A stretch of 43,239 nt of DNA from Alphaproteobacteria bacterium (GTDB lineage: Bacteria; Pseudomonadota; Alphaproteobacteria; Micropepsales; Micropepsaceae). A program made the position numbers and the translations under genes. The number at the start of each line of letters is the position of its first letter. The stretch's first letter is position 1. Below the pieces are notes generated by a model. That model was not told where the DNA came from, made no database searches, and saw only the letters and a list, made by a program, of their open reading frames with translations. Shown piece by piece: positions 36,853 to 43,239 of the stretch. The stretch lies in assembly GCA_947473475.1 (NCBI GenBank), contig CANJBZ010000033.1, positions 1 to 43,239 of the forward strand, read 5' to 3'.

Positions 36853-38217
36853 CTAGGGTTCCCTTAGTGCGGTTTCCCAAGTGCGTGCTACCGGCTTCAA
36901 GAGGTAGTTCAGGACGGTGCGGGCACCGGTCTTAACATCGACCTCCGCATCCATGCCCGGCATGATGCGGTTGGCTTTGGGATCCAAGCCCAGATAGTCA
37001 CGATCGAGAAGAACCCTGATTTTATAGAACTGGTGACCGTCGCGGTCTGAGAACGTCGCCGCCGAAATTCGCTCGACCTTTCCCTGGAGTGTGCCGAACT
37101 GCGAATATTCGAATGCCGACACGCGTATGTCCGCCTGCTGCCCCACCGAAAGCCGCGCAATGTCCTGGGGTTGCACGTCGGCCATAACAACCAGCGGATC
37201 GCCGGTGGGCACAAGCTGCATCAAGGTGTCACCCGGCCGCACGACCGCGTTGACCGCCCTGATAGTAAGTCCCGTAACGACCCCTGACACCGGAGCGGTG
37301 ATATTAAGGCGGTTCGCCCTGCCCCGTTCATTGGCGAGCGAAGCGTCGACCTCCGCAAGTTCCGCCATTTGCTTGGAGATCGCCTCCTGCGCTTCGGCGC
37401 GGACCTTCGCATCGGCATCTGCCAGACGGCGCTCATATTCGGTGAGTTCACTTTGTGCCCGTGTAAGTTCGTCACGGGTGCTTAGGAGTTGCTTGCGATG
37501 ATCGGCTACATCGCGCTGCAAACTGTAATAACGGTCGCGGGTGGTCAGTTGACGTTCAAGCAATTGACCGCTCACCGCCAGCTCGCCCTCGGCCAATTGC
37601 GCGTCATGCTCAAGAATGGGAAGCTGGGTCTGCAGCCGTTCAACGGATGCGCGGCGTTGCGCTATCTGAGCGGAAATGACCTTTTTCTCTGACGCATGCG
37701 CCTCAATCCTCTTCAGATACAGAGCTTGCTGCTCAGCCGTTTGTTGTTCAAATCCCTTACCAATGCTGCCGAACGCGGGCGCGCGGTCTTCAATGATAGC
37801 GCGCTCACCCTCAATGGCTAAAAGGTGAGAAACCCGCTTTGCGGCAAACTGATCGACACCGCCTTGGGAATCCAAGGGAACCAGACGCAGAAGTGTCTGG
37901 CCCTTCTCCACATGGCCGCCTTCGGAGACGAGGATATCCGATACAATTCCCCCCTCAAGATATTGCACAGCGACAAGCTCTCCCGCCGGCGTCACCTGCC
38001 CATGGGCATTCGTCACGATATCGACATGCGCGAAAGCAGCCCAGGTAAGACCGGCAGCCACCAAAGCACAGACCGCAAACACAAGCTGCGACACGCTTCT
38101 GGCGGGCGGACGCTCCTCCAACTCGATCGCTTGGTTGAGCGCCATCACACCAGGATCGAACAGGAGTCTTACCTTAAGCGCCGTCTCTTTGAGTTTGTAG
38201 GCGAAAGCGTCACTCAT
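36853..38217 (-). CDS. HlyD-family type I secretion membrane fusion protein
   Basis: 454 residues. A cytoplasmic N-terminal stretch (1-42) is followed by one transmembrane helix (about 43-63, LVFAVCALVAAGLTWAAFAH). A lipoyl half (GQVTPAGELVAVQYLEGGIV) comes next, then a long coiled coil (about 150-300, KKVISAQIAQRRASVERLQ, ELTEYERRLADADAKVRAEA). The second lipoyl half is LNITAPVSGVVTGLTIRAVN, and a beta-barrel domain (about 330-430) includes the HlyD-family RIMPGMDAEVDVKTGARTVL. It bridges the inner-membrane ABC pump to a TolC-like outer channel, which is not encoded here. Its start overlaps the stop of the ABC gene upstream (ATGA). Confidence 0.93.
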   Translation of the reverse strand: MSDAFAYKLKETALKVRLLFDPGVMALNQAIELEERPPARSVSQLVFAVCALVAAGLTWAAFAHVDIVTNAHGQVTPAGELVAVQYLEGGIVSDILVSEGGHVEKGQTLLRLVPLDSQGGVDQFAAKRVSHLLAIEGERAIIEDRAPAFGSIGKGFEQQTAEQQALYLKRIEAHASEKKVISAQIAQRRASVERLQTQLPILEHDAQLAEGELAVSGQLLERQLTTRDRYYSLQRDVADHRKQLLSTRDELTRAQSELTEYERRLADADAKVRAEAQEAISKQMAELAEVDASLANERGRANRLNITAPVSGVVTGLTIRAVNAVVRPGDTLMQLVPTGDPLVVMADVQPQDIARLSVGQQADIRVSAFEYSQFGTLQGKVERISAATFSDRDGHQFYKIRVLLDRDYLGLDPKANRIMPGMDAEVDVKTGARTVLNYLLKPVARTWETALREP

Positions 38218-40445
38218 GCCGCAATACCGCTTTTTTCAATTCCCAACATTTTTTCGATGGCGCCGTCGGGGTTACCGCCATACTCGATTCCCGACCTGCG
38301 CATAAAAATCGCAAAATCGGCCAGCCGGATATAACTTGGACGGTGGCTTACGAAGGCGACCGTGCGTGAACCACGCAGACGCTCTAGAGCTCTGCCGACC
38401 AAGAAAGCGCCCTGATCGTCGAGCATGGACTCCGGTTCGTCGAGCAAGAGAATCGGCGTTTCGCGTACGAGCGCGCGGGCGATAATCAACTGGCGCTGAA
38501 AGCCCGGTGGCACGTTAGATGTCGAAATGTCACCGAGGCGCGTTTCAAAGCCACGCGGTAACGCAAGGATTTCATCGAGAATACCGGCAATATCCGCAGC
38601 TCTATGCAACGCAGAATCGTCAGCGAGAGGATCTGAAAATCTTAAGTTTTGAGCGATAGTGCCATAGAAGAAATGCATCTTCTGAGGCGCGCAGGCGATG
38701 GATCTGCGGAGCACATGAGGCGGAATTTGCCTGATGTCCGATCCCTCGATTGTCACCGTTCCGCTCTGGGGCTGGTAGAGACCCTGTATCAAACGGAGGA
38801 TTGAAGATTTTCCCGCACCGTTCGGCCCGGCAATGGCGATCATTTTTCCAGGGGGGATTGTCAAATTGATATTCGAGATCGCCGGCTCACCGTCCTTCGT
38901 GTAGCGCAAACTTACACGGTTGAACGCAATCCGGCCTTGCTTAGGCTGGCGCGCCAGATTGGTCGCGGACGTATCGCTTTCATCCGCAAGGCTCAACATC
39001 TGATCCATGGTTCGGATCGAAGAGCGAAGGCGGCCAATTCGCGCAAGCGTTTGGAACAATTGTTGCGCCGGACTTAAGATCCGCCATGTCAACGCCATGG
39101 TGGCGATCAAAGCGCCGACCGTAATTGCTCCATTCATGACCATCACGGCGCCGGAAACAAGAACGCCCAGAGCCGCAGCGCTGCCCAGAAACTGACTGAG
39201 CGCCTCCACGAAGGCCGAACGCGTTTGCAGCCGCATCATCCTGGTTGCAGACGCCGCGGATTTCAGCCGGAACCGGTGCAGCCAAACCTTTTCGCCACCC
39301 TCACGCTTGATCGATTCCTGATGCAGCGTGGTGTCGGTGATATGATTGAACAATTCCGTCGATGCGACACTCTGAGACCGCTCGTATCTATGAAGCCACT
39401 TTGAGCCCAGGAAACCTATGAGCGCGAAAATTGCGCAGGCGATGATCGGCGCAAGCACCAGCCAGCCGGCAACCATGGCAATAACGGCAAGAGCAATAAT
39501 CGAGAAGGGAAAATCGATCATGGCTGTTGCGGCAGGCCCGGCAAAAAGATCCCGTACCGATTGAAATTCGCGCAGCCGCGCCATCTGAGAGCTGATCGAG
39601 GGCCCGTCCGTGAAGCTGAGAGGCAAGCGAATGAGTTTCGCAAAGGTGGCGGTAGCGATGAGGTAATCCACGCGCATAGCCAGCGCGCCCAAGAGATTTG
39701 CGCGCAAGGCTTTCAGATAGATATCCGTCGTCATAACGATCAAGATACCGATGAGAAGCATGGGCAGCGCGTCGAGCGAGCGGTAGGCGATAACTCTGTC
39801 GTAAATGGTCATCACCAACAGCGGAATGGCGATGGAAAGAAGGTTCGTCAGCGCAGAAATCGCAAGCAGCTGCGTGACCACACCCTTAAAGCGATGCAGC
39901 AGGCGCTTAGACCACGAAAGGCCAGCAGCAGCCGGATCGCTCAAATATGGTTTGAGAAAATAGGCGTTGCCTCTCCGCTCCGCCTCGGCCTGCGACAATT
40001 CACGTGTCACGCCCGACGTGTAAGCCTCGATCGTATCGCCAGAACGGCCGAGTAGTACAATGACCTCACCGGTTTTCGTGCATTCGTGCAGACAAGGCAG
40101 AAGATGATTATCTATATCGCAGGGACGTGTACGGCGAGGTTCGGTCGCATAGCCAAGATTGACAAGCGCCGCGCGTAAATCGGCAACGTCCATCGCATCG
40201 CGGAAATGCGGCAGCGCCTCAAACTTCCTAAATTCTCCGCCACGGTACCCACGCGCTTTCAGCAAGGGCGCGAGGCAGGCAGCCGCTTCATGCGTGCGCT
40301 CCCGGCCATCAGGAGGACTTTCGATTTCCGCTTCAGCGTAATTAAACAAAGCGTTCCAGAACCCCGAAAACCTGCCATGGGCAGGCTCGGCTTGCGCATC
40401 GGAACCGGGACCGGGCGTGCTGGGCGGGACTAATTGTGAGGCCAT
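38214..40445 (-). CDS. Type I secretion ABC half-transporter with C39-like domain; non-canonical signature motif
   Basis: 743 residues. Residues about 80-170 resemble the C39-peptidase-like domain of LapB/RtxB-type exporters (VADLRAALVNLGYATEPRR, GEVIVLLGRSGDTIEAYTSG), without a recognisable catalytic cysteine. Transmembrane helices fill about 190-450. The nucleotide-binding domain (about 510-735) has an intact Walker A (GPNGAGKSS, K546), Q-loop Q588, Walker B and catalytic glutamate (ILLLDEP, E670) and H-loop H701. The ABC signature, normally LSGGQ, reads VPPGF (645-649). It therefore has the ATP-hydrolysing residues but an altered signature. It pairs with the degenerate half-transporter four bases upstream, and HlyD follows with an overlap. 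The probable cargo is the divergent cadherin-repeat protein. Confidence 0.9.
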   Translation of the reverse strand: MASQLVPPSTPGPGSDAQAEPAHGRFSGFWNALFNYAEAEIESPPDGRERTHEAAACLAPLLKARGYRGGEFRKFEALPHFRDAMDVADLRAALVNLGYATEPRRTRPCDIDNHLLPCLHECTKTGEVIVLLGRSGDTIEAYTSGVTRELSQAEAERRGNAYFLKPYLSDPAAAGLSWSKRLLHRFKGVVTQLLAISALTNLLSIAIPLLVMTIYDRVIAYRSLDALPMLLIGILIVMTTDIYLKALRANLLGALAMRVDYLIATATFAKLIRLPLSFTDGPSISSQMARLREFQSVRDLFAGPAATAMIDFPFSIIALAVIAMVAGWLVLAPIIACAIFALIGFLGSKWLHRYERSQSVASTELFNHITDTTLHQESIKREGGEKVWLHRFRLKSAASATRMMRLQTRSAFVEALSQFLGSAAALGVLVSGAVMVMNGAITVGALIATMALTWRILSPAQQLFQTLARIGRLRSSIRTMDQMLSLADESDTSATNLARQPKQGRIAFNRVSLRYTKDGEPAISNINLTIPPGKMIAIAGPNGAGKSSILRLIQGLYQPQSGTVTIEGSDIRQIPPHVLRRSIACAPQKMHFFYGTIAQNLRFSDPLADDSALHRAADIAGILDEILALPRGFETRLGDISTSNVPPGFQRQLIIARALVRETPILLLDEPESMLDDQGAFLVGRALERLRGSRTVAFVSHRPSYIRLADFAIFMRRSGIEYGGNPDGAIEKMLGIEKSGIAA

Positions 40446-40449
40446 TATC

Positions 40450-42147
40450 TTATCCCGCCGATTTCATAAGCGCTGCACGATCGCCGCTACGCTCGCACAG
40501 TTTTCCGTCGGCGATCTCGTAAACAACGTCGCAAAGTTTTAGATAGGAGGGGCGGTCGGTAACAAAAATGGCCGCACGTTTCCCTTTTTGACCCTTGAAA
40601 AACTGGAGCAGTCTGAGATCGGCGTCGTGATCCAGTGCGGCATTGGCCGTATCGAATAAGATTACGCGCGGGTTTTGCGCGAGCGCCCTAACGATGCTCA
40701 CGCGTTGCGCAATGCCGATTGGAATGTCGCCAGAGCCCGTGACAAATGTTTCCAAACCGCGACTGAGATTGGCCACATAGTCCGCCAAACCCAGCACACG
40801 GCAAAGCGCAAGCGCACGCCGCTTGACCGGACCATCTTCGAATGAGGTGATGTTTTCCAGAAGAGTGCCGACATAAATCGTTGGAGCGGTCGGCATCAAG
40901 GCGATATGCCGCCGCAATTCACCACTGTCATAGAGGCAGACCGGCACGCCATCATACCTTACGCTTCCCTCGCACGGGGTAAGCAACCCGTTCATGAGTT
41001 TTAAAAGCGTCGAGCGGCCGGACGATGTCTCGCCGGTAATCCCGATGTATCGCCCTGGCGGCACTTCCAAGGTAAGACGGTCAAAGATGTCTCTGTTGCC
41101 GTTCGGATAACGGAAGGTCACCCCATCGATCTTCAAACCCGCTCGCGGGCGTTTGGGAATCGGTGTGTCCCCTTCAATTTGCAATGTCAGTTTTGACATG
41201 CGTTGGATTTTTTCTTCAGCCAGCCTGATAAGCGGGTAACGTGACAAGAGGCCGAGCCCTTTAAGCACCGGTTGCAGCAGGCGCCCGGTCAATATTGTGG
41301 TCGCGGCAAGCCCGCCGATGGTGAGCGCACCTTCCACCACTGCCGCAGCGCCAATCATCACGGTTGCGATTGAAGCGGCTTGCGCAAGTGTGCCCGCAAC
41401 CGCCTGCGTCAGCGCGTTCACACGCGCCATAGCGCCAAATGCTTCCGCGGCATCCTCCGCCAGCCTCTCGTGGCGGCGTTGCAGAAGCCCTTCGGCGGCG
41501 AGCGATTTCACCGTTGAAATGCCGCCCAGACACTCGACGAGAAAGTTATGACGTTTGATATCGGCACGATCGCGACGATCGGTCTGCACGGCGATGTGAC
41601 GTGTTACCGCTAAGCCAAACACGGAGAACAGGACCAGCAGCGCGACCGGAACGGCGGCCATCCAGTTGGCTATGACCGCAATCAAACCAATGAAGATCAA
41701 AATGAATGGGATGTCGGCAAGAAGGCTCGCGGCCTGGCAATAGTACGATCGCACGGATTGAATGGCGTGGAAGAGATCTGCATGGACGCCGGGAGAGTCT
41801 TTTCTGAAGCTATCGATATCGGCGGCGAGAAGGGTGGCAATGGTTCGGCAATTCTCCCGATGGTCATAACGCGCACCTTCTTCTGCCAAGATGCGTGCGC
41901 GTAGACTGCGCAAAGCAACTTCCAGGATGAAAGCCGATAGCGTCAGCCCTGTCAGAACCGCAAGGGTGCTGAGAGAATGGTGCCGGATCACCCGGTCATA
42001 CATTTGCAAGATCGTAAGGGGCAGTGCGAGCGCAAGCACATTGATGCCGAGCGATGCGGCCATTACGTCCCACCGCATCCAAATGCGATGGAGCGATCTC
42101 GTGTGATCTTCCGAAACCATGTTGGGTGTGCGTGTGCTGCGATTCAT
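40450..42147 (-). CDS. Type I secretion ABC half-transporter with degenerate ATPase site
   Basis: 565 residues from ATG at 42147. A GTG three codons earlier and an ATG at 42120 are alternatives, and none has a clear Shine-Dalgarno. Transmembrane helices lie at about 30-300 and there is no N-terminal C39-like domain. The nucleotide-binding domain (about 330-555) is recognisable but every catalytic position is changed: Walker A GETSSGRST has R378 for lysine, the Q-loop glutamine is T420 (MPTAP), the signature is IPIGI (475-479), the residue after the Walker B aspartate is T500 (ILFDTAN) instead of glutamate, and the H-loop histidine is D531 (VTDRPSY). The frame is intact over its full length, so it is a conserved pseudo-ATPase rather than a decayed gene. 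It likely forms a heterodimer with the next ABC protein. Confidence 0.9.
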   Translation of the reverse strand: MNRSTRTPNMVSEDHTRSLHRIWMRWDVMAASLGINVLALALPLTILQMYDRVIRHHSLSTLAVLTGLTLSAFILEVALRSLRARILAEEGARYDHRENCRTIATLLAADIDSFRKDSPGVHADLFHAIQSVRSYYCQAASLLADIPFILIFIGLIAVIANWMAAVPVALLVLFSVFGLAVTRHIAVQTDRRDRADIKRHNFLVECLGGISTVKSLAAEGLLQRRHERLAEDAAEAFGAMARVNALTQAVAGTLAQAASIATVMIGAAAVVEGALTIGGLAATTILTGRLLQPVLKGLGLLSRYPLIRLAEEKIQRMSKLTLQIEGDTPIPKRPRAGLKIDGVTFRYPNGNRDIFDRLTLEVPPGRYIGITGETSSGRSTLLKLMNGLLTPCEGSVRYDGVPVCLYDSGELRRHIALMPTAPTIYVGTLLENITSFEDGPVKRRALALCRVLGLADYVANLSRGLETFVTGSGDIPIGIAQRVSIVRALAQNPRVILFDTANAALDHDADLRLLQFFKGQKGKRAAIFVTDRPSYLKLCDVVYEIADGKLCERSGDRAALMKSAG

Positions 42148-42355: not shown

Positions 42356-43239
42356 ATGTCCGACACTAAGAATTCAGAAGAGCCGTCCGCGTTTTCCTCG
42401 CCCGATGCCGGCAACACGGTCGAAAGAACACAACCCGATTCCGATGTTTTGCAGCCGCCGTCTCCGCCCTCGTCCGGCCCAGCGGGATCGTCTGGCGATG
42501 GCTCACTTTATCTGCAGAATGCCCATTACGGGACACGCACCGATGCCGGACAGACTGTTGAGCCAACGGATGACCCTGGCACCGAGACGGGTGTACTGGG
42601 CATTAGCCAGAGCATCGATGTCGCTGGCGCCAATGAAGCGCCTACCGGCATTGCCCTCTCTAATGCATCGGTGGCGGAAAACGCTAAAGGCGCCGTCGTC
42701 GGCACGCTGAGTGTCAGCGATCCGGATGCCGGCGACAGTCACAGTTTCGTGGTCTCGGACGACCGCTTCGAGATTGCCGATGGACAATTGAAGCTCAAGT
42801 ACGGCGTGTCACTCGATCACGATGCCGGGCCGGATGTCAGCGTCACCGTCACTGCCACCGACGCGGGCGGCCTTTCCACCAGCCAGACCTTCTCCATCGT
42901 TGTCGCCCCCATCAACCATGCAGCCACAGGCATCGCGCTTACCGGTACATCCGTCACCGAGAACACACCGGGCACTGTCATTGGGACACTGACGGTCACA
43001 GATCCCGATGTGGGAGACAGCCACACTCTCAATGTCTCGGACAATCGCTTCGAAGTCGCCGGCGGTCAGCTGAAGCTGAAGGACGGCGTGTCGCTCGATC
43101 ACGAGGCCGAGCCTCATGTCAGCGTTACGGTCACCGCGACAGATGCCGGAGGCCTCTCCACCAGCCAGACCTTCTCCATCGATGTCGCTAACATCAATGA
43201 AGGTCCCACCAGCATCGCGCTCTCCAACGCATCGGTTGC
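42356..43239 (+). CDS. Large cadherin-repeat surface/secreted protein, 5' part only
   Basis: An open frame of 294 complete codons from ATG at 42356 to the window edge, with no stop, so the gene continues. There is no Sec signal peptide. The first 92 residues are polar and disordered-looking (Ser/Pro/Asp-rich, with SLYLQNAHYG in the middle). From residue 93 (Asn of NEAPTGIALSNASV) come cadherin-like repeats of exactly 94 residues: ASVAEN, GTLSVSDPDAGDSH, SDDRFEIADGQLKLK, GVSLDHDAG, VSVTVTATDAGGLSTSQTF. Acidic motifs such as DPDAGDS suit calcium binding. Lack of a Sec signal, the repeats and the divergent type I exporter point to a type I secreted adhesin, whose secretion signal would be at the C-terminus outside the window. 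The Shine-Dalgarno is weak. The role, adhesion or biofilm, is inferred. Confidence 0.87.
   Translation, partial: MSDTKNSEEPSAFSSPDAGNTVERTQPDSDVLQPPSPPSSGPAGSSGDGSLYLQNAHYGTRTDAGQTVEPTDDPGTETGVLGISQSIDVAGANEAPTGIALSNASVAENAKGAVVGTLSVSDPDAGDSHSFVVSDDRFEIADGQLKLKYGVSLDHDAGPDVSVTVTATDAGGLSTSQTFSIVVAPINHAATGIALTGTSVTENTPGTVIGTLTVTDPDVGDSHTLNVSDNRFEVAGGQLKLKDGVSLDHEAEPHVSVTVTATDAGGLSTSQTFSIDVANINEGPTSIALSNASV
42632..43239 (+). repeat. Tandem 282-base coding repeats (cadherin-like modules)
   Basis: Repeat 1 is 42632-42913, repeat 2 is 42914-43195, and repeat 3 starts at 43196 and is cut by the window edge. Each encodes 94 residues beginning Asn and ending just before the next linker Asn. The ends (such as CTCTCCACCAGCCAGACC) are nearly identical at DNA level while the middles differ, as expected from recombination within an array. 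Confidence 0.92.

What the first reader, a model, noticed from the sequence alone, without database searches (positions are those of the whole stretch)
38214..42147. Type I secretion pump built from two complementary, non-canonical ABC half-transporters
Two different ABC proteins lie four bases apart, followed by an overlapping hlyD. The 743-residue subunit keeps the Walker A lysine (K546), Q588, E670 and H701. The 565-residue subunit has changed all the equivalents: R378, T420, T500 and D531. Both replace LSGGQ with a shared pattern [VI]-P-x-G-[FI]. Known type I exporters such as HlyB and PrtD are homodimers with canonical sites. Known heterodimeric exporters (for example TM287/288, TAP1/2) have one degenerate site but keep a canonical signature on the partner. 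Here neither subunit has it. I infer an obligate heterodimer with one hydrolysing site and a remodelled signature, possibly a distinct exporter class for very large surface proteins.
Basis: partly seen in the sequence, partly recalled or inferred. Interest (0 to 1): 0.75.

Follow-up and report, generated by a model that had tools for sequence, protein, structure and literature searches.

The report
Widespread two-subunit type I secretion pump
Two neighbouring, unlike half-transporters form one protein-export pump: they are always found together, sometimes fused into one protein, and have rewritten the ATP-binding signature that nearly all ABC transporters share, so this looks like a widespread, undescribed variant of type I secretion.

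Summary
The heterodimer idea holds up comparatively. In 45 of 45 assessable places in 385 genomes of the class, A has B next door; B-A-hlyD order recurs elsewhere in the phylum. At least 16 relatives encode B and A as one fused protein (e.g. Azospirillum sp. B510). A and B are two well-supported clades whose distances mirror each other (r = 0.94), and B is under purifying selection. The signature change is a family trait: B is conserved as L-P-x-G-[VI]-x-Q-R, A's varies. The R/T/T/D pattern is not: it is confined to the window's own family, and 13 of 81 B proteins keep all four catalytic residues. Best reading: an obligate heterodimeric T1SS exporter with one conserved composite ATP site (A's Walker A/B, Q and H loops plus B's signature) and one variably decayed site. 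Two-ABC T1SSs have precedents (RtxB/RtxE; NHLM ABC1/ABC2), so I call it a new variant of a known kind. Cadherin/Ig/RTX giant proteins flank several loci and are the likely cargo. No biochemistry or dimer modelling was possible.

The parts
40450..42147 (-). Subunit B: 565-aa ABC half-exporter without N-terminal C39-like domain
38214..40445 (-). Subunit A: 743-aa ABC half-exporter with an N-terminal extension that aligns with the N-terminus of LssB (C39-like domain region)
   Evidence: (TIGR03375 positions 6-690)
36853..38217 (-). HlyD/LapC-type periplasmic adaptor, start overlaps the end of A by 4 bases
   Evidence: TIGR01843, 354.7 bits, cut-off 208.65
42356..43237 (+). Probable substrate, 5' part only: divergent ORF with cadherin repeats, runs off the contig end
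   Evidence: the same layout with 1107 aa visible in L068
38802..38828 (-). A Walker A GPNGAGKSS (K546), composite site 1
   Evidence: K in 83 of 84 A proteins
38682..38684 (-). A Q588 (Q-loop), composite site 1
   Evidence: Q in 78 of 84
38427..38453 (-). A Walker B ILLLDEPES (E670), composite site 1
   Evidence: E in 79 of 81
38343..38345 (-). A H701 (H-loop), composite site 1
   Evidence: H in 70 of 81
40702..40725 (-). B signature IPIGIAQR (replaces LSGGQRQR), composite site 1
   Evidence: P in 77 of 84, G in 80 of 84, Q in 83 of 84
41008..41034 (-). B Walker A GETSSGRST (R378 for K), composite site 2
   Evidence: K in 71 of 85 B proteins
40888..40890 (-). B T420 at the Q-loop position, composite site 2
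   Evidence: Q in 51 of 84
40639..40665 (-). B Walker B VILFDTANA (T500 for catalytic E), composite site 2
   Evidence: E in 58 of 84
40555..40557 (-). B D531 at the H-loop position, composite site 2
   Evidence: H in 28 of 84
38490..38513 (-). A signature VPPGFQRQ, composite site 2
   Evidence: second position P 35, S 29, A 13 of 84; fourth-position G in 52

Best explanation
A and B are the two obligate halves of one heterodimeric type I secretion exporter; with the adjacent HlyD-type adaptor and a TolC-like channel encoded elsewhere they export a large repeat protein, probably the divergently encoded cadherin-repeat protein. Each half contributes one transmembrane domain and one nucleotide-binding domain; only A carries the N-terminal C39-like docking region. 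In the head-to-tail NBD dimer, A's Walker A/Q-loop/Walker B/H-loop pair with B's conserved L-P-x-G-[VI]-x-Q-R signature to form the principal hydrolysing site. B's Walker motifs pair with A's less conserved signature to form a second site that is variably decayed across the family and probably catalytically dead in the window's lineage (no Walker A Lys, no catalytic Glu, no His), where it may still bind ATP and act structurally. Shown here by sequence: constant pairing, gene order, fusions, co-divergence, purifying selection, and the conservation asymmetry. Inferred: the dimer itself, which site hydrolyses, and the cargo.
For: Pairing: of 46 A-type places in 43 of 385 class genomes (647-1001 bits; the next match scores 559), 45 have B adjacent and the 46th ends at a contig edge. 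Fusions: B-A in one ORF in L099 (1317 aa), Azospirillum sp. B510 (1363 aa), A. lipoferum 4B and 13 phylum-level loci. Trees: A and B are separate clades, 100/99 and 100/100 with all motif columns masked. Mirror-tree r = 0.94 over 78 loci, permuted maximum 0.11. dN/dS in the window's family: A 0.12-0.24, B 0.10-0.19. Asymmetry: all four catalytic residues intact in 64 of 81 A but 13 of 81 B; 10 of 81 B keep none. B signature P/G/Q nearly fixed, A signature variable. T1SS context: hlyD follows in all 43 of the first 46 loci whose contig extends far enough; TIGR01843 over cut-off. Neighbours with cadherin/Ig/RTX repeats. Besides A and B, no ABC exporter of the window's own genome matches B at E <= 1e-30, and the other five read score only 176-303 bits on the A/B profiles.
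Against: No direct evidence of a heterodimer, ATPase activity or export; the structure tool models single chains only. The A-conserved/B-decayed rule has exceptions: in sister loci L189/L190 A has lost its catalytic Glu (A, S) while B keeps its own, and several A proteins lack the H-loop His. In many relatives both Walker sets are intact, so single-site hydrolysis cannot be claimed for the family. The site-2 co-decay correlation (rho 0.44) is not corrected for phylogeny. In about half of the loci no giant ORF is visible next door.
Confidence: 0.78

Rival explanations
1. A is the exporter as a homodimer, and B is a decayed duplicate that survives as a regulator or accessory protein of the same operon.
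For: B has lost catalytic residues in the window's lineage; A keeps a full catalytic set in 64 of 81 loci.
Against: Many B proteins keep a full catalytic set; B's signature is more conserved than A's, expected only if it completes A's site; B-A fusions; no A without B in assessable loci; A-A sites would use A's own signature, which is degenerate in many loci.
Confidence: 0.1
2. Two parallel homodimeric exporters, A-A and B-B, share one adaptor.
For: In some loci both subunits keep K, Q, E and H.
Against: In the window lineage a B-B dimer would have no catalytic residue at either site; the fused forms have one B half and one A half per chain.
Confidence: 0.04
3. Heterodimer as proposed, but both sites are used in most members and site-2 loss is a late lineage-specific relaxation without mechanistic meaning; the proline signature is the only real family novelty. 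(A sub-variant of the best explanation, so the confidences overlap.)
For: Q in 51, E in 58 and K in 71 of about 85 B proteins; R/T/T/D only in the window's family.
Against: The B H-loop His is already absent in about two thirds of loci and A's signature is weakened in many; 10 of 81 B proteins keep none of the four.
Confidence: 0.35

Closest known systems
LssB/LapB-type T1SS exporter (TIGR03375)
   Same: Best model for both subunits; overall fold, N-terminal region of A, HlyD partner, giant repeat-protein neighbours
   Different: Scores far below the curated cut-off (447 and 344 against 693; other family members 407-515), whereas canonical LssB proteins from the same class score 736-843; homodimer with LSGGQ against heterodimer with LPxG
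RtxB/RtxE exporter pair of MARTX type I secretion
   Same: Two ABC proteins needed for one very large substrate; heterodimer proposed (PMC4316617, PMC3034196)
   Different: Assigned to the HlyB-like Group 2 clade in PMC4316617; gene order B-D-E with the adaptor gene between. Sequences not compared here
NHLM bacteriocin exporters ABC1/ABC2 (TIGR03796/TIGR03797)
   Same: Two unlike ABC exporter genes with a HlyD-type protein
   Different: Low scores (259/213 for A, 159/163 for B; cut-offs 853/709), no C39 peptidase match, different cargo
Heterodimeric exporters with a degenerate site (TM287/288, TmrAB, TAP1/2, BmrCD, Pdr5, ABCG5/G8)
   Same: One conserved and one degenerate composite ATP site; K-to-R in Walker A also occurs in ABCG5/G8 (PMC7756269)
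   Different: Not type I secretion exporters of giant proteins; the consensus site there keeps a canonical signature (own knowledge), here the conserved signature is L-P-x-G-[VI]

Membership tests
Type I secretion exporter (inner-membrane ABC component) | ABC_membrane + ABC_tran architecture | tested here: met
   Both Pfam models over cut-off in A and B
Type I secretion exporter (inner-membrane ABC component) | Encoded with a HlyD-family adaptor | tested here: met
   TIGR01843 354.7 bits; hlyD next to the pair wherever the contig extends far enough in the first 46 loci
Type I secretion exporter (inner-membrane ABC component) | TolC-type outer-membrane partner available | tested here: inconclusive
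   Three TolC-like proteins in the genome, none over the TIGR01844 cut-off, none on the same contig
Type I secretion exporter (inner-membrane ABC component) | Exports an unprocessed protein with a C-terminal signal | not testable with these tools
   Needs an experiment; in the window the substrate's C-terminus lies beyond the contig end
LssB subfamily TIGR03375 | Score over the curated cut-off 693.1 | tested here: not met
   A 447.1, B 343.7; controls from the same class 736-843
LssB subfamily TIGR03375 | Canonical LSGGQ signature | tested here: not met
   VPPGF / IPIGI; comparison exporters carry S at position 2 in 13 of 15, one of the two others being itself an A-type protein
LapA/LapG retention system | LapG-type protease (PF06035) in the genome | tested here: not met
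   No PF06035 match in the own genome; the control Caulobacter is found
Heterodimeric ABC exporter with degenerate site | Two unlike half-transporters always together | tested here: met
   fusions
Heterodimeric ABC exporter with degenerate site | One composite site conserved, the other lacking catalytic Glu or other key residues | tested here: met
   Window: met. Family-wide: variable, with exceptions L189/L190
Heterodimeric ABC exporter with degenerate site | Physical heterodimer | not testable with these tools
   No multimer prediction or biochemistry available
RtxB/RtxE type | Member of the RtxB and RtxE clades (HlyB-like Group 2) | not tested
   RtxB/RtxE sequences were not fetched; A and B score higher on the LssB than on the HlyB model
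NHLM ABC1/ABC2 | Score over TIGR03796/TIGR03797 cut-offs | tested here: not met

The most novel reading that the evidence does not exclude
A separate, widespread class of type I secretion exporters whose only conserved ATP site is closed by a proline-containing signature (L-P-x-G-[VI]-x-Q-R) in place of LSGGQ, so that giant proteins are exported by an asymmetric engine with a re-engineered gamma-phosphate contact.
Probability: 0.5. Interest if true: 0.72.

Novelty: new variant of a known kind. Interest (0 to 1): 0.6.

Why it matters
Type I secretion is modelled on homodimers such as HlyB and PrtD. A conserved heterodimeric branch, with natural fusions and members grading from two full catalytic sets to one, gives a natural series for asking whether one ATP site is enough to move multi-thousand-residue proteins, and what the signature serine really does. 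It also corrects annotation: the fused forms appear as generic ATP-binding cassette proteins and the subunits tested fail the curated T1SS models, so the systems and their giant adhesin-like cargo are easily missed.

Tried and rejected
Recent decay or pseudogene of B: rejected (four relatives share it, dN/dS 0.10-0.19). R/T/T/D as family hallmark: rejected. Canonical LssB membership: rejected on curated score with controls. NHLM bacteriocin exporter: rejected. LapG-type retention: no PF06035 in the genome. A+B as one clade apart from all canonical T1SS exporters: unresolved (49/45 with motifs masked; 90 in the quick tree), so a single duplication origin is not claimed. The search for related loci in genome contigs gave only three distant ABC proteins, none of this family. 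P. denitrificans BapBCD was checked as a possible described member; it has a single ABC gene. Legionella T1SS survey: its two-ABC locus is NHLM-type. Literature searches for a described heterodimeric or LPxG T1SS of this kind found none; only open-licence PMC papers are held. No structure was predicted: only single chains of the window's own or certain fetched proteins are allowed, and the fused relatives exceed 1200 aa.

Full report
OBSERVATION. B is 40450-42147, A 38214-40445 (4 bases apart), and hlyD 36853-38217 overlaps A by 4 bases. An alignment with relatives confirms all eight residues and both altered signatures. Both proteins are standard exporters by Pfam, and TIGR03375 (LssB) is the best NCBIfam model for each, but both fall far below its curated cut-off of 693 (A 447, B 344). 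Canonical LssB proteins from the same class pass it at 736-843 even as fragments, whereas other members of the A/B family score 407-515.

PAIRING. A search of 385 genomes of the same class with a profile of A shows a clean gap: 46 places at 647-1001 bits, in 43 genomes, then the next match at 559. All but one have a B gene directly adjacent; the exception ends at a contig edge. Two B genes are broken by a stop or frame change (L098, L155). In the first 46 loci read, the order is B, A, hlyD wherever the contig extends far enough to show it. The pairs also occur in 'same phylum' genomes outside the class. The search scores only the top two or three candidates of each genome, so these counts are lower bounds.

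FUSION. In at least 16 loci B and A are one open reading frame of 1295-1427 aa, B first. Named examples are Azospirillum sp. B510 AZL_RS33650 (1363 aa) and A. lipoferum 4B AZOLI_RS22950, each followed by hlyD and preceded by a divergent giant gene annotated as Ig-like (16.6 kb in B510). A natural B-A full transporter is strong evidence that the unfused halves work as a heterodimer.

CO-EVOLUTION. A and B form separate clades (100/99 and 100/100) with all motif columns masked. Whether A+B together exclude the canonical exporters is unresolved (49/45). Pairwise distances in A and B across 78 loci correlate at r = 0.94; permuted pairings never exceed 0.11. Shared species history contributes to this value, so it supports constant partnership rather than proving contact. 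Within the window's family dN/dS is 0.12-0.24 for A and 0.10-0.19 for B, although dS is near saturation.

SIGNATURE AND ATP SITES. Across 84 A, 85 B and 15 comparison exporters (one of the 15, L048, is itself an A-type protein), B's signature is nearly fixed: P at position 2 in 77 of 84, G at position 4 in 80, Q at position 7 in 83, against S at position 2 in 13 of 15 comparison exporters. A's signature varies (P 35, S 29, A 13; G in 52). A's Walker A Lys is present in 83 of 84, its catalytic Glu in 79 of 81 and its H-loop His in 70 of 81; in B the figures are 71 of 85, 58 of 84 and 28 of 84. Because each ATP site combines the Walker motifs of one subunit with the signature of the other (established for ABC transporters; summarised in PMC7756269), the conserved elements all belong to one site, A-Walker plus B-signature, and the variable elements to the other. 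All four catalytic residues are intact in 64 of 81 A and 13 of 81 B; ten B keep none. In the window the second site has lost Lys, Gln, Glu and His at once; Pdr5 shows comparably deep decay of one site. The serine-to-proline change removes a hydroxyl that normally contacts the gamma-phosphate (established knowledge, not tested here).

EXCEPTIONS. In sister loci L189 and L190 A has lost the catalytic Glu while B keeps its own, so the roles may have swapped. Several A proteins in the L102-L112 group lack the H-loop His. The R/T/T/D pattern belongs to the window's family only; the next relatives (L072-L076) show intermediate states such as E-to-N with K or L at the Walker Lys.

CARGO. The window's divergent ORF has cadherin repeats but is cut by the contig end. 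The same divergent gene in relative L068 shows 1107 aa with cadherin repeats; other loci have cadherin, Ig, PA14 and RTX repeats, one of 2834 aa with 46 RTX stretches. About half of the loci show no giant ORF within the fetched stretch, so cargo size is not a proven rule. The own genome has no LapG homologue and three TolC-like proteins below the T1SS cut-off.

KNOWN SYSTEMS. Two-ABC type I systems exist: MARTX RtxB/RtxE, both needed, suggested to be a heterodimer (PMC3034196, PMC4316617), and NHLM exporters. I did not compare RtxB/RtxE sequences. Literature searches found no description of this LssB-related pair, its fusions or its proline signature, within the limits of the held library.

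VERDICT. The sequence observation is right, the heterodimer inference is well supported by comparison though untested in the laboratory, the residue pattern is lineage-specific, and the class is a new variant of a known kind.

Noticed in passing
L189:1547-5472 and L190:1299-5563: Sister loci in which the A subunit has lost the catalytic glutamate (A or S) while B keeps it: the active site may have switched sides.
   Followed up: partly
L157:7121-11097: A much more divergent B-A pair (B 395 bits, A 647 bits) in a genome that also holds a normal pair: an early-branching or fast-evolving second system.
   Followed up: no
L098:6325-8019 and L155:3649-4848: B genes broken by a stop or frame change next to intact A genes; decay or assembly error not distinguished.
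   Followed up: no
window:32184-36795: Two tandem, related 744-752 aa proteins with a CBM9-like domain, convergent with hlyD.
   Followed up: no
window:42356-43239: The contig ends inside the repeat region of the putative substrate gene, probably an assembly break caused by the repeats.
   Followed up: no
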